Part shown: piece after piece, positions 10,294 to 22,062 of the stretch | Numbering within the stretch: position 1 is the first letter of the stretch | How the letters are laid out: each line of letters opens with the position of its first letter | Source of the DNA: Petrotoga mexicana DSM 14811 | Lineage (GTDB): Bacteria; Thermotogota; Thermotogae; Petrotogales; Petrotogaceae | Assembly: GCF_002895565.1 (NCBI RefSeq) | Contig: NZ_AZRN01000012.1 | Coordinates: 124,001-188,000 of the forward strand | Reading direction: 5' to 3' | Length of the DNA stretch: 64,000 nucleotides | Program-made: the position numbers and the translations under genes | The notes under the pieces: model-generated | The model's input: only the letters and a program-made list of their open reading frames with translations | Databases searched by the model: none | Told to the model about the DNA's origin: nothing

Positions 10294-10836
10294 ATGTCAT
10301 ACCATGGGTTAATAGCCGCCGGTTTTGGTGGACAAGGTGTAATGCTTTTCGGTCAAATAATTTCTTTAGCGGCTATGATTGATGGAAAATATACCACATG
10401 GCTTCCATCATATGGACCTGAAATGCGAGGTGGAACTGCAAACTGTACGGTAATAATTTCTGATGAATACATTGCGTCACCGGTGTTAGATGAACCGAAT
10501 GAAGTTGCTGCGTTCAATATTCCGTCTATGATAAAATTTGAAAAAGCATTGAAAGAGAATGGGCTATTGTTGATCAACTCTTCTGTGATCGATAGAAAAC
10601 CAGAAAGAAAAGACATACATTTAGTTAAAGTACCTGCTAATGAAATAGCGGACGAACTAGGTAATTTAAAAGTTTTAAATATGGTTATGCTTGGAGCTTA
10701 CTTAAAAGCAACACAAGCAGTCAGCTTTGAAGCCGTAGAAGAAGCTTTAAAAGAAAAATTAACAGGGAAAAAGGGAAAATTGTTAGAAATAAACCTAAAG
10801 GCAATAAAAGCGGGTATGAAAGAAACTGTAAAATAA
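10294..10836 (+). CDS. 2-oxoacid:ferredoxin oxidoreductase gamma subunit
   Basis: 180 residues of the pyruvate/ketoisovalerate oxidoreductase gamma domain. Signs are AAGFGGQGVMLFGQIISLAAM at the N-terminus (cofactor-binding glycine-rich loop) and YGPEMRGGTANCTVIISDEYIASP, which is nearly invariant in the family. It completes the four-subunit enzyme encoded by the preceding genes. TGGAGGTG precedes the ATG. A strong bidirectional terminator follows and closes the operon. Confidence 0.9.
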   Translation: MSYHGLIAAGFGGQGVMLFGQIISLAAMIDGKYTTWLPSYGPEMRGGTANCTVIISDEYIASPVLDEPNEVAAFNIPSMIKFEKALKENGLLLINSSVIDRKPERKDIHLVKVPANEIADELGNLKVLNMVMLGAYLKATQAVSFEAVEEALKEKLTGKKGKLLEINLKAIKAGMKETVK

Positions 10837-10886: not shown

Positions 10887-10977
10887 TGGCGGAGAGAGTG
10901 GGATTTGAACCCACGGACAGCTTTTAACCGTCACACGCTCTCCAGGCGTGCGCCTTCGACCACTCGGCCATCTCTCC
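10887..10977 (-). tRNA. tRNA-Ser (anticodon GGA)
   Basis: On the minus strand the sequence starts GGAGAGATGGCCGAGTGG and ends TCTCTCCGCCA. The acceptor stem GGAGAGA pairs with TCTCTCC and CCA is encoded. The anticodon stem CACGC/GCGTG encloses the loop CTGGAGA, giving anticodon GGA (reads UCC/UCU). A long variable arm (GACGGTTAAAAGCTGTC) and the T arm with GGTTCAAATCC are present, as expected of a class II serine tRNA, 91 nt with CCA. Confidence 0.97.
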
Positions 10978-11056: not shown

Positions 11057-12070
11057 TTATATTTTAGATAATCCCAAATTAGGAACAACATCCAAATCTA
11101 ACGTATCAAACATGTTTCTTATATACTTTTCGTACCCAGCACGGCATATCATCGCTGCATTATCAGTACATAACGATTGTCTTGGATAATAGATATTCAA
11201 TTTGTCTTTAAAAGTATTTAATTTTTCTCTCAACAGAGAGTTTGCGGCAACTCCTCCTGCTATTACAATATCTTTTATATTTTCTTTAATTGCAAATTTA
11301 GTAACTTTATAAACAAGGGTGTCTATTATTGCTTCTTGAAATGAAGCAGCTATATCTTCTTTTTTTGCCTCCGGATAATCTCTTACAAAATACAAAACAG
11401 ATGTTTTTAAGCCAGAAAAAGAAAAGTCGTATCCTTTGTTGTACAATGGTCTAGGAAAATCGTACAATTTTTGAGCCTTTTTTGAAATTTCATCTATAAC
11501 TGGTCCTCCTGGATAACCTAAATCCAAAATCCTGGCGACTTTATCAAAAGCTTCTCCTGCCGCATCATCACGTGTTTCCCCTATTATTTCAAAGTCCAAA
11601 TAATCTTTAACCAGCAAAATTGCTGTATGTCCACCGGAAACTAATAATGTGACAAAAGGAGGTTTCAGTTTTGGGAATTCAAGAAAGTTAGCATATATAT
11701 GACCCATTAAATGATTTACACCAATTAATGGTTTACCCAAGGATAAAGAGATCCCCTTAGCAAAACTTACCCCAATAAGTAAGGCCCCGATTAATCCAGG
11801 GCCAAAAGATACACTAACTGCATCTATGTCATTTGGGGTAATTTGTGCCTCTTCGAAGGCTTTTAAACTTAATTTGTACAAAACTTCGACATGTTTTCGA
11901 GCGGCAACTTCTGGTACAACTCCTCCAAATATCTTATGAACATCGATCTGTGAATAAACTAAATTAGAAAGCAATTGATCTTTACCTTTTAATATTGCCA
12001 CCGCAGTTTCATCACATGAAGTTTCTACTCCAAAAATAATCGGATCTTTTTCACTTTCTAATATGTTCAA
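11057..12070 (-). CDS. tsaD: tRNA N6-adenosine threonylcarbamoyltransferase
   Basis: 337 residues of the Kae1/TsaD/Gcp family, which transfers the threonylcarbamoyl group to A37 of ANN-decoding tRNAs. The metal-binding HLMGH motif (in [13 protein letters not shown]), the N-terminal [13 protein letters not shown] and the phosphate loop [12 protein letters not shown] identify it. The start is a TTG whose last three bases form the TGA stop of clpX, so the two are coupled. Its ATPase partner TsaE is encoded in the same window (61402-61881). Confidence 0.95.
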
Positions 12071-13296
12071 GCGCTTTCCTTCCTTTTAACGGCAGGTTTT
12101 TTCTTAGTTACTACCTCTTCATCTATAACGATTTTGTTAATTTTATTTTTTATCTCAGGTGCTTCATACATTATATCGAGCATTATTTCTTCAAATATTG
12201 TCTTTAATGCCCTTGCACCTGTGCCTCGTTTCAAGGCTTGCGAACATATCTCTTTCATAGCTTCTGTTGTAATTTCTAGTTCTATACCTTCTATTTCCAA
12301 CATCTTTTGATATTGCTTAAATAATGCATTCTTTGGTTCCATGGCAATTTTAACGAGGTCTTCTTGATCTAAATCGTTAAGAGTTGCAACCACAGGGAAT
12401 CTACCTACAAATTCAGGAATTAATCCATACTTAATAAGATCATCTTGAACAATATTTCTTAAGATCTCGCCATCTCTTTGTTTATTATTACTTTTTATGT
12501 CGGCTCCAAATCCTAAAGAAGAATCCTTTACCCTGTGTTTTATTATGTCTGTTAAACCGTCAAACGCCCCTCCTGCAATGAAAAGGATCTTTGAGGTGTC
12601 TATTTGGATAAATTCTTGGTAAGGATGTTTCCTTCCTCCTTGAGGGGGAACGTTAGCTAAAGTTCCTTCAACTATTTTAAGTAATGCTTGTTGTACTCCT
12701 TCACCAGAAACGTCCCTAGTGATTGAAGGGTTTGGCGATTTCCTAGCTATTTTATCAATTTCATCAACATAAATTATTCCTTTTTCAGCTTTTTTTACGT
12801 CATAATCACAAGCTTGCAAAAGTCTTAGTATAACGTTTTCAACGTCATCTCCAACATAACCAGCTTCAGTTAATGTTGTAGCATCTGCAATTGCAAAGGG
12901 GACGTCCAATATCTTAGCTAAAGTCTGAGCGATCAAGGTCTTTCCAGTACCTGTAGGCCCAATCATTAAAACGTTAGATTTATCTAACTCAACATCATTG
13001 ATATTCTTTGAAGAATATATTCTTTTGTAGTGATTGTAAACAGCAACAGAAATTATTTTCTTAGCTGTTTCTTGACCAATTACATATTTATCTAGTTCTG
13101 ATTTTATCTGTCGTGGAGTTGGAAGAGTTTTAACTTTTGCTTCAGCCTTTTCCCCGTTTTTTGTTTTATTCTCTTCAACTAACTCTTGAAAAAGGTTTAT
13201 ACACTCATCACAGATATAAATACCGTTAGGGCCTGCAATTAAAGCTTCTGCTTGGCTTGATGGTTTCCCACAAAAAGAGCAATACTTTTCTGACAT
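12067..13296 (-). CDS. clpX: ATP-dependent Clp protease ATP-binding subunit ClpX
   Basis: 409 residues, the standard ClpX length. It unfolds substrates and feeds them to ClpP. Seen: an N-terminal C4 zinc-binding domain (CSFCGK...CDEC), Walker [12 protein letters not shown], Walker [12 protein letters not shown], the pore loop region [10 protein letters not shown], and SSLGFGADI at the place of the IGF loop that docks to ClpP. The ATG at 13296 is preceded by AGGAGG at eight bases; a TTG directly before it is also possible. No clpP lies next to it here. A -10 hexamer TATAAT occurs on the minus strand at 13347-13352. Confidence 0.95.
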
Positions 13297-13374
13297 CAAT
13301 GATTCCTCCTGTTATACGTTTCTTACTTGTTTAAAGATTCAAACTTATTATACCATTTTTATGTTAAGATAAAT

Positions 13375-14265
13375 TTATAATAAACTCATGTATTTATCGC
13401 CACTATCAGGGGCAATGGTAACAATTCTTCTACCTTTTCCCATTCTATCGGCTAATTTAATCGCTGCCAATATATTTGCACCTGAAGATATTCCTACAAA
13501 TAATCCTTCCTCTTTTGCTAATTTTTTTGTCATTTCAATAGCTTCTTCGTCATCTATCTGCATTACTTCATCTATTAGATTCTGATCCAAATTATCTGGA
13601 ATGAATCCCGCTCCTATACCTTGAATCGTGTGTTTACCAGGGTTACCTCCAGATATGACAGGTGAATTGGTTGGTTCTACTGCCACTATTCTAACACATT
13701 CTGAGAATGCTTTTTTTAACGCCCTTGCTACCCCGGTTATTGTTCCACCAGTTCCCACCCCTGCAACAAAGGCATCTAAAGAATAGTCCATCTGTTTGAT
13801 AATTTCTGGTCCCGTAGTTACTTCATGTGAATATGGATTGGCAGGATTTGAGAACTGATTGGGCATATATCCTTTTGTTTCGTTCACAATATCTAAAGCC
13901 TTGTTAATTGCCCCTTTCATTCCTTGATCAGCGGGAGTAAGTATCAATTCGGCACCAAAAAACTTTAAGATTTTCTTTCTTTCTTCACTCATGCTTTCAG
14001 GCATAGTTAATATGACTCTATAACCTCTGCTTCTACCAATTGCTGCCAAAGCTATACCTGTGTTTCCGCTCGTAGGTTCGACAATTATATTTTGGCTCTC
14101 ATTAAGCTTGTTCTTAATTTCACCATCACTTATCATAAAAAAAGCGGGCCTATCTTTTATACTACCTGCGGGATTATTTTTTTCTAATTTAACAAAAACT
14201 CTTCCAGGTTGAATAATCTTTGATAAGGTAATAATTGGAGTGTTCCCTATCGAGGTGTAAATCAA
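13375..14265 (-). CDS. cysK: Cysteine synthase (O-acetylserine sulfhydrylase)
   Basis: About 296 residues, PLP fold-type II. It makes cysteine from O-acetylserine and sulfide. The Lys in NPAGSIKDRPAFFM forms the Schiff base, PTSGNTGIALAA is the substrate loop and GVGTGGTITGVARAL binds the PLP phosphate. The TTG at 14265 is preferred because GGAAGGTGATC lies five bases before it; an upstream ATG at 14280 has no ribosome site. It lies 91 bases downstream of cysE, which supplies its substrate, so the two form a cysteine-synthesis unit. Confidence 0.93.
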   Translation of the reverse strand: MIYTSIGNTPIITLSKIIQPGRVFVKLEKNNPAGSIKDRPAFFMISDGEIKNKLNESQNIIVEPTSGNTGIALAAIGRSRGYRVILTMPESMSEERKKILKFFGAELILTPADQGMKGAINKALDIVNETKGYMPNQFSNPANPYSHEVTTGPEIIKQMDYSLDAFVAGVGTGGTITGVARALKKAFSECVRIVAVEPTNSPVISGGNPGKHTIQGIGAGFIPDNLDQNLIDEVMQIDDEEAIEMTKKLAKEEGLFVGISSGANILAAIKLADRMGKGRRIVTIAPDSGDKYMSLL

Positions 14266-14356
14266 AAGATCACCTTCCATCTTATATTGTTTCAGATTAG
14301 ATCAAAAAAATTATCTTACTCTTGCATATGTTTTCAGACGTTCCTAGATGAATTAT

Positions 14357-14968
14357 CTAAATTACAAAATCCGAGTTTATTGTATTGTTTAAGTCATAGT
14401 AGTTAGAAGATGGACAATTGGTTTTTTTGATCTTTGCTGGTACCCCAACTGCCAAAGATTTAGGTGGCACATCCATTAAAACAACGGAATTAGCACCAAT
14501 GACCGATTCATCTCCTATGTATATGTGTCCAAGGACCTTAGCCCCAGCACCGATCATCACATTTTTACCAACTATCGGATGTCTTTTACCTATAGTGACA
14601 TTTTTAGCTCCCAGAGTTACCCCGTGATAGATCAACGTCCCACTACCTACACTCGCAGTTTCTCCAATAACAACACCAAAACCGTGGTCAATGACTACTC
14701 CAGGTTCAATATAGGCTGCGGGATGTATATCCATAGAATGTAATATCTTACTCAACACATATATAACGTAAGCAAGAGGATATATCTTGTACCTATAAAA
14801 GAAATTGGCAAAACGGTAAGCCATCAACCCATGAAAAGGGATCGAAGTGAAAAATACCTTCCACTTGTTTTTTGCAACCGGATCCTTTTTGATGTACATA
14901 TCTAAATCTTTTGACAAGGCTTTGAAAATTCTTCCAAAATCCTTAAAAAAATTTAAAATACCTTTCAT
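14357..14968 (-). CDS. cysE: Serine O-acetyltransferase
   Basis: 203 residues, short bacterial type (EpsC/CysE). It acetylates serine with acetyl-CoA, the first step of cysteine synthesis. The C-terminal half is a left-handed beta helix with hexapeptide repeats (HGFGVVIGETASVGSGTLIYHGVTLGA region) and closes with VPPKSLAVGVPAKI. The His in IYHGVTLGA and Asp-His in VIDHGFG are the expected active-site residues. GGGGAGTGA precedes the ATG. It stands upstream of cysK on the same strand. Confidence 0.92.
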   Translation of the reverse strand: MKGILNFFKDFGRIFKALSKDLDMYIKKDPVAKNKWKVFFTSIPFHGLMAYRFANFFYRYKIYPLAYVIYVLSKILHSMDIHPAAYIEPGVVIDHGFGVVIGETASVGSGTLIYHGVTLGAKNVTIGKRHPIVGKNVMIGAGAKVLGHIYIGDESVIGANSVVLMDVPPKSLAVGVPAKIKKTNCPSSNYYDLNNTINSDFVI

Positions 14969-15103
14969 GCAATCACTCCCCGGCTAAATTAAATATAACT
15001 AAAATTGTCGCTATTACAACACGAATTATATCTTAATTTCTTTTCAAGAGAAAGATGATTTCCTAAATTACTGTTAACGCTTCTTCTCTGTAAGATGATT
15101 AAA

Positions 15104-16174
15104 TTAAGTTAGCTTTTTGAACTCTTGAACTAAAAAACTGGCTCTTTTTTCGTTTTTCTTTTCTTCTAATACTAATTCTTTCGGTGATAGGTAAACTCTT
15201 AAATTTTCTGACATTCTAGATAAAATTGAACGAATTTTCCTAGTATGTATTGTGATTAAATATTGATTTTCAAAAGAATAAGGCAATTTAAAAGAAATTT
15301 TTGAATTGTTGTTTTCTTTATAAATGTAACTATTACCTTTATTTAACAGTAAGTAGGCAATATTACTTTCAGAGAAGGTTACATATAATTTTGATAGTAC
15401 CTTTTTTAATTCCTTTGTGTTGATTTCTTTTTCTTCAACAAAACTGTTTTGTGTTACCAACAAATTCTTATTGTAAGAAGGGATCGATGAACATATTTTG
15501 ATGAATATTCCGGGGACTCTTAGTACTATATCTTTTTTGTTTATACCAAATTCAAGGATAGAACTTTTTTTCAAAAGATTTAAAGACTTAACTATATGTC
15601 TTGCGGAAATAAACGGAATTTCTCTATGAAACTCCTCACGAACATTCCCGTAGATGCTGTTCAATTTATAATAATTACTCAAATAACCAAAAATTAAATT
15701 ATCATTGAACGTGAAAAAGTCAATGACATCTCCTTCGTTGGCAGAAGCAGAAACAAAATCGAGTTTATTAAGAAAAGACCCTATCTCTTTTTTGCTTAAT
15801 AAAGTAAACTCTCTACTGACCTCTATTTGTTTGGTATCCATCTTTTCTATTTTACTATTCAATGTGATCCCTTGAATTTCAAAGGATATAAGCTTATCTT
15901 CTACAGTTATTTTAACCAAAGAATCATCTTTTAATTTCGTATCCCTTATAATCCCCTTTAAGTATTGGATTGGAACGGAAGCAACTCCATCAAACGGGAG
16001 GAATTCTTTGGTAACATTCAGATATATCTTCGCACATCCATCTGTCGCATAAATTTTAAGAGCTCTGTCATAATAAAAGTAAGCATTTCTGAAGGAGGGT
16101 TCAACGGAACCACAGAATGCGTCAAGAAGTTTTGTAATAGTTTTTAATTCAACATAAGTCAACCAACCTTCCAT
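15104..16174 (-). CDS. Divergent sliding-clamp-like protein (DnaN fold) downstream of polC
   Basis: 356 residues, about the length of the DNA polymerase III beta clamp (366 in E. coli). By eye it follows the three-domain clamp plan. Domain 1 has VASVPIQYLKGIIRD where DnaN has its VPARKF-type helix. Domain 2 opens with REFTLLSKKEIGSFLNKLDF and contains FISARHIVKSLNLLKKSSILEFGI. Domain 3 ends YLITIHTRKIRSILSRM, then RVYLSPKELVLEE and a closing FLVQEFKKL. Identity to canonical DnaN is low. The ATG overlaps no other gene and follows the polC stop by five bases, with AAAGGATG as ribosome site. It could be the PolC clamp or a paralogue; which one is unknown. Confidence 0.6.
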   Translation of the reverse strand: MEGWLTYVELKTITKLLDAFCGSVEPSFRNAYFYYDRALKIYATDGCAKIYLNVTKEFLPFDGVASVPIQYLKGIIRDTKLKDDSLVKITVEDKLISFEIQGITLNSKIEKMDTKQIEVSREFTLLSKKEIGSFLNKLDFVSASANEGDVIDFFTFNDNLIFGYLSNYYKLNSIYGNVREEFHREIPFISARHIVKSLNLLKKSSILEFGINKKDIVLRVPGIFIKICSSIPSYNKNLLVTQNSFVEEKEINTKELKKVLSKLYVTFSESNIAYLLLNKGNSYIYKENNNSKISFKLPYSFENQYLITIHTRKIRSILSRMSENLRVYLSPKELVLEEKKNEKRASFLVQEFKKLT

Positions 16175-16179
16175 TTATT

Positions 16180-19100
16180 TCATCCTTTAAAAAGTGACAT
16201 TTGATTTGTTTCTGGTAAGTTTTTCAACACACCTAATTCCCTTAAAGTTTCTACATTTGTTTTGTTACATCCACTCTTTGCAGCAAAATCTTCTATGGAT
16301 TTAAACCCATTTTCTCGTGATTTAATGATATTTTCTGCAGCTTTTTCGCCTAGATTCGGAACCTTGATAAAAGGCACAATAAGAGAATTTCCATCTATTA
16401 AAAACTTCTTTGAATCAGACTTGTACAAATCAACCATGGTGAAATTAAACCCTCTGAGCATCATTTCCAATGCTAACTCCAAAACAACCATCTCATTTTT
16501 TTTACGAACATCCAAATCCATATTACGGAGTTCAAATATTCTTTTCTTAATAGCTTCTCGACCGGAGAAAATGACTTTTAAGTTGAATTCATCACCTTTG
16601 ACGGTAAAATATGTAGAATAAAAAGCTAATGGATAATGAACTTTAAACCATGCGATTCTAAAGGCCATACTAACGTAAGCAGCCGCATGAGCTTTTGGAA
16701 AGAGGTATTTAATTTTTTGGCAAGAGATGATGAACCATTCCGGTACTTTTAATTCTTTCATTAGTTCAATATCTTCTGCGTCTATACCTTTACCTTTTCT
16801 TACCTTTTCCATTATTGAAAAAGCACTTTTTGGTGGTGCGCCTTTAGATAATAAATAATTCATTATATCGTCTCTACAAGAAATTACCTCATCTAAAGTT
16901 GCAACCTTCCTATCTATCCAGTTTTTAGCTATTCCGGACCATACATCAGTGCCATGAGATAAGCCAGATATTCTTACCAATTCAGAAAAACTCTTCGGTC
17001 TTGTGTCTTCCAACATCCTTCGAACAAAGGTAGTACCAAATTCTGGGACCCCTAACGTTCCAACAGTTGTACCCAATTCATTTTTTAAGTCTATTTTCAA
17101 AGCTTTTGTGGAAGAGAACAAACTCAAGGTTTTCTTATCGTCCATGGGGATTGCCATGGGGTCTACTCCAGTTAAATCTGACATCATTTTAATGAATGTG
17201 GGGTCGTCATGTCCAAGCGCATCTAATTTTACAAGATCGTTATGTATTACGTGGTAATCAAAATGAGTGGTTTGAACATTAGCTTTATTATCATTGGCAG
17301 GGAACTGAATCGGTGTATAATCGTAAACTTCCTCTTCTTTTGGCACTATCATGAGTCCACCGGGGTGTTGTCCTGTTGTCCGTTTCACCCCTGTTATCGC
17401 TTTGACTATTCTCGTTATCTCACTATTTTTTACAATTCCCTGCTCTTCACAATATTTCTTAGCGAAACCAAAGGCAGTTCTATCTGCAATCGTTGATATA
17501 GTACCTGCCCGAAAAACATGATCTTCTCCGAACATTTTTTCTATGTATTTATGTGCTATATTTTGATAATCTCCAGAAAAATTCAAATCTATATCAGGTA
17601 TTTTGTCACCTTCGAATCCCATGAATGTTTCAAAAGGAATATCTTGGCCATCTTTTTTCATTTTTGTTCCGCATTTTTCACATTTTTTATCGGGAAGATC
17701 ATAGCCAGAACCTATCTCCTTATTATCAAAAAATTCTACATTTTTACAATTTGGACATATGTAATGAGGAGGGAGAGGGTTTATCTCCGTTATTCCCAGC
17801 ATTGTAGCCACTAAAGAAGAACCAACAGACCCCCTGGAACCAACCAAATATCCATCCTCTAGGGATTTTTGTACTATTTTTTGAGCTATTAGATACAGTA
17901 CCGCATATCCATGTTTTATGATAGATTCCAGTTCTCTATTCAATCGGCTTTCAACAATTTCTGGTAAAGGATTTCCATATATCTCATAGGCCTTTTTCTT
18001 TGCAATTTCTTCTATTTCCACTTCTGCATTCTCTATCTTGGGAGGATGCAGTTTGTTACTAAGCGGCTTTATTGATTCTACCTGATCTGCGATCTCATTA
18101 GTATTGGTTATGACTATTTTCTCGGCTATTTCTTTATCTCCAAAAATTCTTTGAGCTTCATCTACCATCTCATCAGTTGTACGCAAGTATCTGTGTGCAA
18201 TGGAAGTTTTTCTCTTTTCTGCAACTTTTAATGCGTTGTAAAATATTTGGTCTTCTTTATCTAGATAATGAGCGTTTGAAACCATTACAACGGGCATGTT
18301 TAATTCGTTGCCAAGGTTATATATATCTTTATAAATCTTTTTTAACTGCTCTTCTGAAATAGATCGTTCTGATAAGGCATCCAATGGGGTCAATTCCAGA
18401 TAATCGTAAAACTTGGCTATTTCGATAATTTCATCATGAGATCCACCCCTAAGATAGGTTTGAAAGATTTCTCCTTCTTCTGCTCCACTACCTATCAGCA
18501 AACCTTCTCTCATTCGGGATAATTCACTTTTTAAAATTCTGGGTACTCTGTAAAAATATTTTACGTGGGCATTTGAAACTAGTTTATAAAGATTCTTGAG
18601 GCCGATTTTGTTCTTTACCAAAATAGTCATAGTACTTGGTCGGATTCTTCTAAAATCTATGAATTTTTGTAATTTTTCAAGATCCGACAACATTTCCACA
18701 TTTTTAGGTTTTGCCATTTCTATAAGTTTCAAAAACACTAAAGCGGTTATATTTGCATCTTCATGAGCCCTATGGTGTTCAAAATTTCCAAGCTTTAACT
18801 CCTCAACTACCTTATCCAACCCATATCCTTTTAAAGTTAACAAGGATTTCGAAAGGGCTAAAGTATCTATATAGGTCTGTTCAAAGTGTTCGTTATAAAC
18901 TTTTCTAACCCATTCCCGTATAAAACGGTAATCAAAATCAGCGTTATGGGCAACTAACACTGTGCCTTCTATGAAACTCAAAAATTGAGGTAGGACTTCC
19001 TCTATCGGCTTTTCAACTTCCAACATCTGATTTGTTATACCTGTAAAATTACTTGTAAAGTTTGAGACAGGTTTTCTGGGCTTAATTAAACGATGAAACT

Positions 19101-20343
19101 TAGACACGATTTTCAGGTTCTTTATTTTTACAGCACCTATCTCAATTATTTCGTGCATAGCAGGTTCTAATCCTGTGGTTTCCAAATCGAAAACAACAAA
19201 TTCAGTTTCACTTATTTTTTTATCTTCCGTCAGCAAACTTATAATGTTGACAAATTCATCAACGACATAGGCTTGCATACCAAAAATAGGTTTTATACCT
19301 TCTGCAACAGCTTTTTCATAAAATTCTGGAATACTCTGAACGACCCCAGAATCGGTTATAGCTACCGCTTTATGGCCCCAATTTTTTATGGTCTTTACTA
19401 CTTCCCCCACGTCGAGTAACCCTTCCATCGCACTTAGTTTTGAGTGTAAATGAAGCTCCACCCTTTTTGTGGGGTAGTTATCTTTCCTTTCAAGGGTTTC
19501 TTCTTTTAACTTAACTATATTCATAGGTCTAATTGCAAATTCATGACTAAAAGAATCGTAAAAAATAATACCTTCAATTAATACGTTATCTCCCTCATCT
19601 AATTCTTTGTTTAAATTATTAGCCGTTTCAGAAAAGGTTTTTACAACAGCGGAACTTTTTTTATCAGTAATGAAAAGAGTAGATACAGGCCCTTTTTCAT
19701 TGTACTCTTTGTAGAATATTTTCCCGTTAACTACAACGTTACTTCCTTCATTTGAAGGAAGCATCGATAACGGTAGTGGTACTTTTTTAAAATCCCTCCC
19801 CATAATCACGACCCTTTCTGTATCGGCTAATTTTTTCGAAATATCGGAATTAGACATTAAGTTACTATCATGGGAATCAGACCTGTCATAACCTTTATCA
19901 ATAAAAGTGGGTTTTAAACTTTCATCTATAATAAATTCATAAGGGATTCTGCCACCGAGATATTTAAATAAAATATTATCCAATTCTTCTTTTTCCTTTG
20001 TTAATCTGTTTTTTACTATCGGCGAGTACGTTTTAAATACTATTTTGTTTTCTTGAAAATATTCAGGCTTTAAAAGTCTTAGATAATCTTTTAAACGATG
20101 ATTCATTATCAATTGTTGCCAATTTCTAACAATAAATTCGGGTCCTTCATCATTTGTAAAAGAGATTTTGACATCTCTCTTGAGAAGTCTAGTAAAGAAA
20201 AGCTTCAATGAAGCCTCATCGATATCCTTACCTATATCCTGTAAATTGATTTCTGCCTCCTCATCTTTTACAATGATTTTTCCACTTATTTCAAAAGGAA
20301 TAAAACCTACATTTTCCATCAAGAAATTTTTAATATCTTGCAT
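16180..20343 (-). CDS. polC: DNA polymerase III, PolC type (alpha subunit with proofreading exonuclease)
   Basis: 1387 residues, replicative polymerase of the low-GC Gram-positive type. In order: N-terminal domain, OB fold (around VVVNGKIFYKEYN), PHP domain starting RVELHLHSKLSAMEGL, an inserted DEDDh exonuclease (FVVFDLETTGLEP ... LVAHNADFDYRFI), the rest of PHP, a four-cysteine zinc site (CPNC...CEKC), and the palm with PDIDLNFSG. It ends NQMSLFKG, where QMSLF fits the clamp-binding pentapeptide. The ATG at 20343 has AGGAGGAG eight bases upstream; it overlaps the end of ruvC by 14 bases. The following gene encodes a clamp-like protein. Confidence 0.96.
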   Translation of the reverse strand: MQDIKNFLMENVGFIPFEISGKIIVKDEEAEINLQDIGKDIDEASLKLFFTRLLKRDVKISFTNDEGPEFIVRNWQQLIMNHRLKDYLRLLKPEYFQENKIVFKTYSPIVKNRLTKEKEELDNILFKYLGGRIPYEFIIDESLKPTFIDKGYDRSDSHDSNLMSNSDISKKLADTERVVIMGRDFKKVPLPLSMLPSNEGSNVVVNGKIFYKEYNEKGPVSTLFITDKKSSAVVKTFSETANNLNKELDEGDNVLIEGIIFYDSFSHEFAIRPMNIVKLKEETLERKDNYPTKRVELHLHSKLSAMEGLLDVGEVVKTIKNWGHKAVAITDSGVVQSIPEFYEKAVAEGIKPIFGMQAYVVDEFVNIISLLTEDKKISETEFVVFDLETTGLEPAMHEIIEIGAVKIKNLKIVSKFHRLIKPRKPVSNFTSNFTGITNQMLEVEKPIEEVLPQFLSFIEGTVLVAHNADFDYRFIREWVRKVYNEHFEQTYIDTLALSKSLLTLKGYGLDKVVEELKLGNFEHHRAHEDANITALVFLKLIEMAKPKNVEMLSDLEKLQKFIDFRRIRPSTMTILVKNKIGLKNLYKLVSNAHVKYFYRVPRILKSELSRMREGLLIGSGAEEGEIFQTYLRGGSHDEIIEIAKFYDYLELTPLDALSERSISEEQLKKIYKDIYNLGNELNMPVVMVSNAHYLDKEDQIFYNALKVAEKRKTSIAHRYLRTTDEMVDEAQRIFGDKEIAEKIVITNTNEIADQVESIKPLSNKLHPPKIENAEVEIEEIAKKKAYEIYGNPLPEIVESRLNRELESIIKHGYAVLYLIAQKIVQKSLEDGYLVGSRGSVGSSLVATMLGITEINPLPPHYICPNCKNVEFFDNKEIGSGYDLPDKKCEKCGTKMKKDGQDIPFETFMGFEGDKIPDIDLNFSGDYQNIAHKYIEKMFGEDHVFRAGTISTIADRTAFGFAKKYCEEQGIVKNSEITRIVKAITGVKRTTGQHPGGLMIVPKEEEVYDYTPIQFPANDNKANVQTTHFDYHVIHNDLVKLDALGHDDPTFIKMMSDLTGVDPMAIPMDDKKTLSLFSSTKALKIDLKNELGTTVGTLGVPEFGTTFVRRMLEDTRPKSFSELVRISGLSHGTDVWSGIAKNWIDRKVATLDEVISCRDDIMNYLLSKGAPPKSAFSIMEKVRKGKGIDAEDIELMKELKVPEWFIISCQKIKYLFPKAHAAAYVSMAFRIAWFKVHYPLAFYSTYFTVKGDEFNLKVIFSGREAIKKRIFELRNMDLDVRKKNEMVVLELALEMMLRGFNFTMVDLYKSDSKKFLIDGNSLIVPFIKVPNLGEKAAENIIKSRENGFKSIEDFAAKSGCNKTNVETLRELGVLKNLPETNQMSLFKG

Positions 20344-20821
20344 TTTTGAAGCTCCTCCTAAAATTTCCATGACAAAAAGCTGTGGCTAACGCATCTGCTG
20401 CATCATCTGGAGTTGGCGTTTTTTCCAACTTCAATAATAACTTTAAAGTTCTCTGTATCTGCCCTTTTTCAGCTCTTCCATATCCTGTAACAGCCTGTTT
20501 TATCTGAAAAGGTGTGTATTCATAAATCGGTATATTTTCTTTTTCTAAACAAAGTAGAATAACACCTCTCGCCTCTCCTACCTGTATAGCGGTTGCAACG
20601 TTTTTAAAGAAATATAATTTTTCTACAGCAGACTCATCAGGTTTATAGGTTTCTATTAAATTTCTGAGTTGTTCGTCTATGTTCAGTAACCTTTTTGGAA
20701 GTTCGTCTTCCTTGCTAGTATATATTACGCCATAATCAATCAAGTTGAACCTGTTACCTTTTTTTTCAAGGACACCGTATCCTATCCTTCCATAGCCGGG
20801 ATCTATTCCCAAAATTACCAT
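20330..20821 (-). CDS. ruvC: Holliday junction resolvase RuvC
   Basis: 163 residues. It is the endonuclease that cuts Holliday junctions symmetrically. Catalytic acids are visible: Asp in ILGIDPGYGRIGYG, Glu in SAVEKLYFF, and the Asp pair in TPDDAADALATAFCH. The ATG at 20821 shares its first base with the stop of the upstream M24 peptidase (TAATG), with GGAG nine bases before; an upstream in-frame ATG is less well placed. It overlaps the polC start by 14 bases. Confidence 0.94.
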   Translation of the reverse strand: MVILGIDPGYGRIGYGVLEKKGNRFNLIDYGVIYTSKEDELPKRLLNIDEQLRNLIETYKPDESAVEKLYFFKNVATAIQVGEARGVILLCLEKENIPIYEYTPFQIKQAVTGYGRAEKGQIQRTLKLLLKLEKTPTPDDAADALATAFCHGNFRRSFKNARY

Positions 20822-22062
20822 TAAAACACACTCCAAATACATTCAATTTCTTCAATCTCTTTGGGGATTTCTCTGGATAAATTTTCGCATCCATTCTCAG
20901 TTATAAGAAGATCGTCTTCTATGCGAACCCCGATACCCTCTTCTTCTATATACAAACCTGGCTCATTGGTAATGACCATTCCTGGTTTTAAAGGAATATT
21001 CCTATCTCCTACGTCATGGGTATCCAAACCTAAAAAGTGACTCACGGAATGAAAATAATATTTTGAAAGCTCTTCATCGGTTTTAATCAAGCCAATTTTT
21101 TTACAACTTTCTGCTAACGATTTCTTGGCAATTTCATTCAATTCAAAAAGGGTTAAACCTGGTTTGGCTTGTGACTGAACTTCTTTCTGGGTATTTAAAA
21201 CAATTTGGTAAATTTCTGCTTGTCTTGGAGAAAACTGTCTACTTATGGGAAAAGTCCTTGATATATCCCCACTATAATAATTATATTGTGCCCCCAAGTC
21301 CAACAATACTAAATCGCCCTCTTGTGTTTTTCGGCTGTTTGCAGAGTAATGTAAAATCGTAGAATTTGGTCCTGAGGCTACTATTGGTTTAAAAGCGAAA
21401 TCTTTTACCCCGTTTTTTCTCAAAGAAAAATCAAAATATGCTTCAAGCTCGTACTCGTACATTCCAGGCTTTGAATTTTTTATTATGTTCAAAATCCCTT
21501 CTCTTGTAATTTCAATGGCTTTCTTAATATTATTGATTTCTTCTTCATCTTTAATAGTCCTCAATTCTGCTATTTTTGCTGAAACATCTTTTATACTAAC
21601 ATATGGAAATAATCTTTGTGTTTCTTGAGCAATTTGCTTTTCTTTTGTCATACTCTCCCAATGAGGAGATTTTAAATACAAATATACATTCTTAATGTTA
21701 AACCTTGATAGGGTGTCTCCAATATATCCATTTAATTCATCCAAAAAAGATATATCTTCTTCTTGAATTTTACTAAACTTAGAACAATGTTCTTTACTTG
21801 GCTTTTCACCAACCCATCTAGCTAACTTTGGATCGTTTCTTTCTATGAATAGTTTTTCAACTGTTTTTGATTCGGTTTTGTAAATTAATAAATAAGCGTT
21901 TTCTATATCTAAATCCGTAAAATAGTAGAAGTTTCGATCAGGAGTAAAGCTATAGGTTTCGTCTGCGCTTTTTACTGGACTTTTTCCTGAGTAAAGAATC
22001 AACATCGAACCTTCTTCCAAACCGTTCATTATTTTTTCTCTTCTACTTTTTACATCTGCCAT
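20821..22062 (-). CDS. M24 family metallopeptidase (Xaa-Pro aminopeptidase-like)
   Basis: 413 residues with the aminopeptidase P layout: an N-terminal creatinase-like domain and a C-terminal pita-bread domain. Metal ligands are seen as Asp in LLDLGAQYNYYSGDISRTF (two), His in HSVSHFLGLDTHDVGD, Glu in NEPGLYIEEEG and Glu in VRIEDDLLIT. It should remove N-terminal residues preceding proline. The ATG at 22062 follows AGGAGGAGTCAGT; the longer reading frame upstream has no such site. It is the first gene of a peptidase-ruvC-polC-clamp-like run of overlapping genes. Confidence 0.9.
   Translation of the reverse strand: MADVKSRREKIMNGLEEGSMLILYSGKSPVKSADETYSFTPDRNFYYFTDLDIENAYLLIYKTESKTVEKLFIERNDPKLARWVGEKPSKEHCSKFSKIQEEDISFLDELNGYIGDTLSRFNIKNVYLYLKSPHWESMTKEKQIAQETQRLFPYVSIKDVSAKIAELRTIKDEEEINNIKKAIEITREGILNIIKNSKPGMYEYELEAYFDFSLRKNGVKDFAFKPIVASGPNSTILHYSANSRKTQEGDLVLLDLGAQYNYYSGDISRTFPISRQFSPRQAEIYQIVLNTQKEVQSQAKPGLTLFELNEIAKKSLAESCKKIGLIKTDEELSKYYFHSVSHFLGLDTHDVGDRNIPLKPGMVITNEPGLYIEEEGIGVRIEDDLLITENGCENLSREIPKEIEEIECIWSVF

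What the first reader, a model, noticed from the sequence alone, without database searches (positions are those of the whole stretch)
15104..16174. Divergent sliding clamp encoded directly downstream of polC
Seen: a 356-residue protein with a three-fold domain plan and strand/helix landmarks of DnaN, coded five bases after polC. PolC ends in QMSLF, a clamp-binding motif. Known: bacteria usually have dnaN near dnaA, not beside polC. Inference: a clamp paralogue that works with PolC or competes with the main clamp.
Basis: partly seen in the sequence, partly recalled or inferred. Interest (0 to 1): 0.66.

Follow-up and report, generated by a model that had tools for sequence, protein, structure and literature searches.

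The report
Second, ancient sliding-clamp family in Thermotogota
Next to the replicative polymerase gene lies a gene for an unannotated protein predicted to share the shape of the ring that holds polymerases on DNA; nearly every Thermotogota genome carries one copy beside its normal ring gene, and its best-conserved residues point to a partner-binding cleft in a different place from the normal one.

Summary
Observation confirmed. Window 15104-16174 (minus strand) encodes 356 aa, 5 nt after polC, whose product ends in QMSLF-KG. Alone, the protein matches no DnaN model, but a 43-homologue profile matches DnaN full length (hhalign 97.9%). AlphaFold2 gives pLDDT 92.5, and Foldseek's top PDB hits are all bacterial beta clamps (E 1e-20, TM 0.81, 13% identity). 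The genome also has a canonical dnaN elsewhere.

The polC neighbourhood is not the main point. One copy occurs in 98 of 103 Thermotogota genomes, plus 6 of 297 sampled from a Desulfobacterota-type phylum. It sits behind polC only in two families. The family and DnaN are separated by a 100/100-supported long branch and it is under purifying selection, so this is an ancient second clamp lineage, not a recent duplicate.

The canonical QxxLF pocket (domains 2/3) is not conserved. The best-conserved residues (G22, E25, D45, G46, C47, R192, H193, K196, C228) sit largely at or beside the homologous positions one domain earlier, at the 1/2 cleft. C47 and C228 align with His175 and Met362, which bridge the E. 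coli pocket, and are kept or lost together. I infer a DNA-encircling clamp with a partner cleft at domains 1/2. The ring, DNA binding and partner are untested.

The parts
15104..16174 (-). Divergent sliding-clamp-fold protein, 356 aa; domain 1 about residues 1-117, domain 2 about 118-240, domain 3 about 241-356
   Evidence: ORF; AF2 pLDDT 92.5; Foldseek PDB beta clamps E 1e-20; hhalign to DnaN 97.9% full length
16034..16111 (-). Codons 22-47, domain-1 half of the conserved cluster: G22, E25, R29, D45-G46-C47
   Evidence: G22 invariant, E25, D45, G46 and C47 over 90% in 75 homologues; C47 aligns with E. coli His175 in the domain-shifted alignment
15491..15616 (-). Codons 187-228, domain-2 half of the conserved cluster: P187, R192-H193, K196, C228
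   Evidence: R192 and K196 invariant in 82 sequences, H193 H or R only; H193 aligns with Tyr323 and C228 with Met362 in the domain-shifted alignment
16180..20370 (-). polC, replicative DNA polymerase; C-terminal clamp-binding motif QMSLF-KG; 5 nt upstream of the target start
   Evidence: NF001688 1739 bits; translation
20330..20842 (-). ruvC, overlaps the polC start; ruvC-polC-target order kept in the two families with the linkage

Best explanation
The gene encodes a second sliding clamp: a beta-clamp-fold protein of an old lineage distinct from DnaN, kept as one copy in nearly all Thermotogota beside the ordinary DnaN. SHOWN by computation: clamp fold, homology to DnaN, separate clade, near-universal single copy, purifying selection, basic pore-side helices, loss of conservation at the canonical DnaN pocket, and strong conservation at homologous positions one domain earlier. 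INFERRED: two protomers form a ring round DNA, and partner proteins (or an interdomain lock) use the domain 1/domain 2 cleft built round D45-G46-C47, R192-H193, K196 and C228 in place of the domain 2/3 cleft. It would then tether a different set of enzymes from DnaN, or act in a different situation (repair, recombination, damaged DNA). In Petrotogaceae- and Kosmotogaceae-type genomes its production is probably coupled to PolC by the close spacing (-1 to 11 nt) in one operon.
For: Fold: AF2 of the window protein (pLDDT 92.5) and of the orthologue from a genome the length of T. maritima's (95.7), both with beta clamps as top Foldseek hits. Homology: profile-profile 97.9%, colinear; profile against PDB finds beta clamps at E 3e-6. 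Distinct lineage: 100/100 branch separating the family from DnaN, with Thermotogota DnaN grouping with E. coli DnaN. Distribution: 98/103 genomes, usually beside a canonical DnaN. Selection: dN/dS 0.05-0.09, like dnaN. Pore: six pore-side helices net +9.2 on average against +3.3 in DnaN. Pocket shift: canonical positions p = 0.84, domain-shifted positions p < 5e-5 (local) or 0.0012 (global), DnaN control p = 0.00025. C47 and C228 kept or lost together in 37 of 38 representatives; their E. [quoted passage not shown]
Against: No ring could be modelled and no coordinates were available, so the proximity of C47, C228, R192, H193 and K196 is inferred by homology. The shifted-pocket test was devised after seeing which residues were conserved. 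The local alignment of domain 2 to DnaN domain 3 is weak (hhalign 6-50%). The protein is basic (pI 9.2) where DnaN is acidic (pI 4.6), unlike a typical freely sliding clamp. Of the dimer-interface residues, the domain-1 side is hydrophobic throughout but the domain-3 side is not. No partner is known.
Confidence: 0.5

Rival explanations
1. It is the dedicated processivity clamp of PolC, binding the C-terminal QMSLF of PolC in the usual domain 2/3 pocket and competing with DnaN.
For: Directly downstream of polC in 14 genomes of one family and 13 of another, always 11 nt apart or less; clamp fold.
Against: The pocket positions are not conserved. The linkage is absent in one genus of the same family and in the other Thermotogota families examined. 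Relatives occur in a Desulfobacterota-type phylum, where PolC is not expected: PMC3919608 confines PolC to Firmicutes, Fusobacteria, Tenericutes and Thermotogae. Canonical DnaN is present and fits QMSLF.
Confidence: 0.15
2. A clamp-fold protein that is no longer a ring on DNA: a monomeric or DnaN-associated regulator, for example a heterodimer partner or decoy, or a DNA-binding protein, with the domain 1/2 charged and Cys cluster as a structural lock or ligand site.
For: Basic overall (pI 9.2 against 4.6); poor conservation of the domain-3 dimer-interface equivalents; the invariant G, E, D, R, K and two Cys look more like a lock or ligand site than a greasy peptide groove.
Against: Pore-side helices are strongly basic, and the domain-1 interface positions (I75, L105) are hydrophobic in all members. 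All three domains are intact in members as different as 18% identity.
Confidence: 0.25
3. A clamp acquired long ago from a virus or mobile element and domesticated.
For: Foldseek also finds phage clamps (best E 6e-21). A distant relative with E25-R192-R193-K196 lies beside an SbcC/D-like nuclease pair and an RNase H in one genome (L161).
Against: No match in phage or plasmid records by tblastn and none in viral contigs. phrog_947 fits canonical DnaN far better.
Confidence: 0.08

Closest known systems
Bacterial beta sliding clamp DnaN (TIGR00663; PF00712/PF02767/PF02768)
   Same: Three-domain clamp fold, colinear domains, basic pore-side helices, length about 350-370 aa
   Different: About 13% identity, no match to the DnaN models for the window protein, canonical peptide pocket not conserved, basic instead of acidic protein, conserved cluster at the domain 1/2 cleft, occurs beside a real DnaN
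Bacillus DnaN-2 (second clamp; PMC3290774)
   Same: Second chromosomal clamp gene beside dnaN
   Different: DnaN-2 is about 40% similar to DnaN-1 and lies in Bacillus; here identity is about 13% and the lineage is shared by a whole phylum
Multiple PCNAs of some archaea (from memory)
   Same: More than one clamp in a cell, with different partners
   Different: PCNA is a two-domain trimer clamp; this is of the three-domain DnaN type
Phage DnaN-like processivity factors (phrog_947)
   Same: Divergent three-domain clamp fold
   Different: No phage relative found by sequence; the family is chromosomal and, by its distribution, mostly vertically kept

Membership tests
DnaN beta clamp (orthologue of the canonical clamp) | Match to curated DnaN models above cutoff | tested here: not met
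   No Pfam or NCBIfam DnaN hit for the window protein even at E 1; only 2-4 of 43 homologues give weak hits
DnaN beta clamp (orthologue of the canonical clamp) | Three-domain clamp fold | tested here: met
   AF2 pLDDT 92.5; Foldseek beta clamps E 1e-20, TM 0.81; hhalign 97.9%
DnaN beta clamp (orthologue of the canonical clamp) | Peptide-binding pocket at domains 2/3 (E. coli R152...R365) | tested here: not met
   Positions no more conserved than average, p = 0.84; DnaN control p = 0.00025; residue list from PMC11139829
DnaN beta clamp (orthologue of the canonical clamp) | Groups with DnaN in a tree | tested here: not met
   Separate side of a 100/100 branch; the genomes carry their own DnaN
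Sliding clamp in the wide sense | Homodimer ring that encircles DNA | not testable with these tools
   Only single chains can be modelled here
Sliding clamp in the wide sense | Conserved hydrophobic dimer interface (E. coli I78, F106, I272, L273) | tested here: inconclusive
   I75 and L105 hydrophobic in all; I272 and L273 equivalents 44% and 76%
Sliding clamp in the wide sense | Positively charged pore | tested here: met
   Pore-side helices net +10 in the window protein, family mean +9.2, DnaN mean +3.3; pore-side assignment by homology
Bacillus-type DnaN-2 (recent dnaN duplicate) | About 40% similarity to DnaN, derived from it | tested here: not met
   About 13% aligned identity; separate clade

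The most novel reading that the evidence does not exclude
A second bacterial sliding clamp lineage, older than the Thermotogota radiation, in which the partner-binding site sits at the domain 1/domain 2 cleft instead of domain 2/3, with a coupled cysteine pair (C47/C228) where E. coli has His175/Met362. It would bind a different motif from QxxLF and may be gated by redox state or metal.
Probability: 0.3. Interest if true: 0.82.

Novelty: new variant of a known kind. Interest (0 to 1): 0.64.

Why it matters
Bacteria are normally described as having one sliding clamp with one peptide pocket. A second clamp lineage kept by a whole phylum that includes Thermotoga, unseen by the standard models, would mean that their replication or repair machinery has a component that I could not find described. 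It would show that the three homologous clefts of the clamp fold can swap the job of partner binding. It is directly testable: single-chain proteins of about 350 residues with confident models, from thermophiles among others.

Tried and rejected
Chance or spurious ORF: rejected (98/103 genomes, dN/dS 0.05-0.09). Misnamed ordinary DnaN: rejected (no model match; genome has its own DnaN). Circular permutation of DnaN: tested because single domains hit shifted domains of PDB clamps; domain-by-domain hhalign gives the colinear order as best for domains 1 and 3 (T1-D1 92-94%, T3-D3 94-95%), so permutation was dropped. Zn site C47-H193-C228: not adopted, since H193 is Arg in 8 of 82. Contamination of the Desulfobacterales contig L097: unlikely, since its neighbour has only 26-35% identity matches in Thermotogota and the protein groups with five more genomes of that phylum. 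No match in 398 genomes of a Clostridia phylum or 296 Spirochaetota, both samples without an internal positive control.

Full report
WHAT IS THERE. The ORF lies on the minus strand at 15104-16174 (356 aa, ATG). Upstream on the same strand are polC (16180-20370; 5 nt gap), ruvC (20330-20842, overlapping the polC start) and an aminopeptidase-like gene; cysE, cysK, clpX and tsaD follow downstream (names of these neighbours read from sequence, not tested). PolC is a full PolC by NCBIfam and ends NQMSLFKG. PMC3919608 reports that 98% of PolC proteins carry a QLSLF-type clamp motif, so the motif is ordinary and is explained by the canonical DnaN. That DnaN is present at G000:C34:205559-206671, between a gene I read as a lysine 5,6-aminomutase subunit and ispF.

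IS IT A CLAMP FOLD? Alone, the protein matches nothing relevant in Pfam, NCBIfam or the PDB sequences. With a family alignment it does: A1 (43 homologues) against the genome's own DnaN gives hhalign 95%, and against 19 DnaNs 97.9%, E 5.6e-13, colinear over 346 columns with 13% identity. The A1 profile retrieves beta clamps from the PDB at E 3e-6 and the canonical DnaN of many relatives. AlphaFold2 gives pLDDT 92.5 and pTM 0.90, and Foldseek lists only bacterial beta clamps at the top (E 1e-20, TM 0.81). The orthologue from genome G093 (length 1,860,725, which I remember as the length of the T. maritima MSB8 chromosome) gives pLDDT 95.7 and E 6e-23, with T. maritima DnaN 1vpk among the hits. 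Its place directly behind alaS suggests TM1395; that locus tag is recalled, not tested.

HOW WIDE AND HOW OLD. In the phylum Thermotogota 98 of 103 genomes have it (78 of 82 good-quality ones), nearly always as one copy beside a canonical dnaN. Re-searching the five without it found only their DnaN or nothing. Outside, a motif scan of the 84,980-species collection gave one confirmed non-Thermotogota member (L097, titled Desulfobacterales). A profile search of 297 genomes of that phylum found six strong members in all, L097 included (138-215 bits); samples of a Clostridia phylum (398) and of Spirochaetota (296) gave none. No phage, plasmid or viral-contig relative was found. A maximum-likelihood tree puts all family members on one side and all DnaNs, E. 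coli and Thermotogota alike, on the other side of a long 100/100 branch. Within close relatives dN/dS is 0.05-0.09, as for dnaN. So it is a maintained, functional, separate clamp lineage.

THE polC LINK. In the window's family (14 genomes outside one genus) and a second family (13 genomes checked; some contigs match records titled Kosmotogaceae), the target starts between 1 nt before and 11 nt after the polC stop, and ruvC-polC-target is kept where the locus is long enough to see it. In one genus of the window's family (7 genomes) and in the other families examined the gene lies elsewhere: behind alaS, next to ddl, behind tsaD. The link is thus local to two families and cannot define the function for the phylum.

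HOW IT MAY WORK. In 75 homologues the best-conserved positions are G22, R192, K196 (no exception), D45, C228, E25, G46, C47, H193 and R320, although overall identity falls to about 20%. I mapped the E. coli pocket (residue list from PMC11139829) on the family. In the direct, colinear mapping the pocket positions have mean entropy 2.76 bits, no better than random (p = 0.84), while in a DnaN set the same positions are conserved (0.97 against 1.63, p = 0.00025). Mapped one domain earlier (target domain 1 on DnaN domain 2, target domain 2 on DnaN domain 3), T172, G174, H175, N320, Y323 and M362 fall on T44, G46, C47, S190, H193 and C228 (p < 5e-5 for the locally aligned positions, 0.0012 with a global alignment of domain 2). 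The ATDG stretch of DnaN domain 2 is thus matched in domain 1 of this protein. [quoted passage not shown] coli pocket; their counterparts C47 and C228 are both present in 30, both absent in 7 and split in 1 of 38 representatives (Fisher p 6e-7, not corrected for ancestry), which supports contact. This test was post hoc, and the domain 2 to domain 3 alignment is weak by itself. The pore-side helices are strongly basic (+9.2 against +3.3 for DnaN), and the protein as a whole is basic where DnaN is acidic. Of the four hydrophobic dimer-interface residues, the two on domain 1 are hydrophobic in every member and the two on domain 3 are not.

VERDICT. The interpretation needs changing from 'PolC clamp' to 'second clamp lineage of a phylum, with a probable relocated partner cleft'. 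Ring formation, DNA binding, and the nature of the partner remain inference.

Noticed in passing
G041 (93% complete) and G047 (79% complete); L050, L055: These two draft genomes carry the divergent clamp but no canonical dnaN was found with TIGR00663; could be assembly gaps, or the divergent clamp standing alone.
   Followed up: partly
G007:C1:1818009-1819067: A second DnaN-like stretch (45% identity to the window genome's DnaN) interrupted by TAG and TAA, apparently a decayed dnaN copy.
   Followed up: no
L079-L084 (genus g6 of the window's family): Canonical DnaN of this genus is 404-428 aa, with an insertion near residue 60; the same genus lacks the polC-clamp linkage.
   Followed up: no
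G020:C9:270749-271671 (L026, L064): The divergent clamp gene is split by in-frame stops in this 87%-complete genome: decay or sequencing error.
   Followed up: no
L161:5629-6669 (G145:C1:944631-945545): A more distant clamp relative with E25, R192, R193 and K196 but neither Cys, beside an SbcC/D-like nuclease pair and an RNase H; looks like a phage or mobile replication module.
   Followed up: partly
L121, L049 against window 11057-16174: In one genus of another family the clamp lies behind clpX-tsaD; in the window the same two genes lie downstream of it after cysE-cysK, so clpX-tsaD-clamp linkage recurs.
   Followed up: no
window 10890-10977, minus strand: tRNA gene by Rfam (60 bits) between the ORF ending at 10836 and tsaD.
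   Followed up: no
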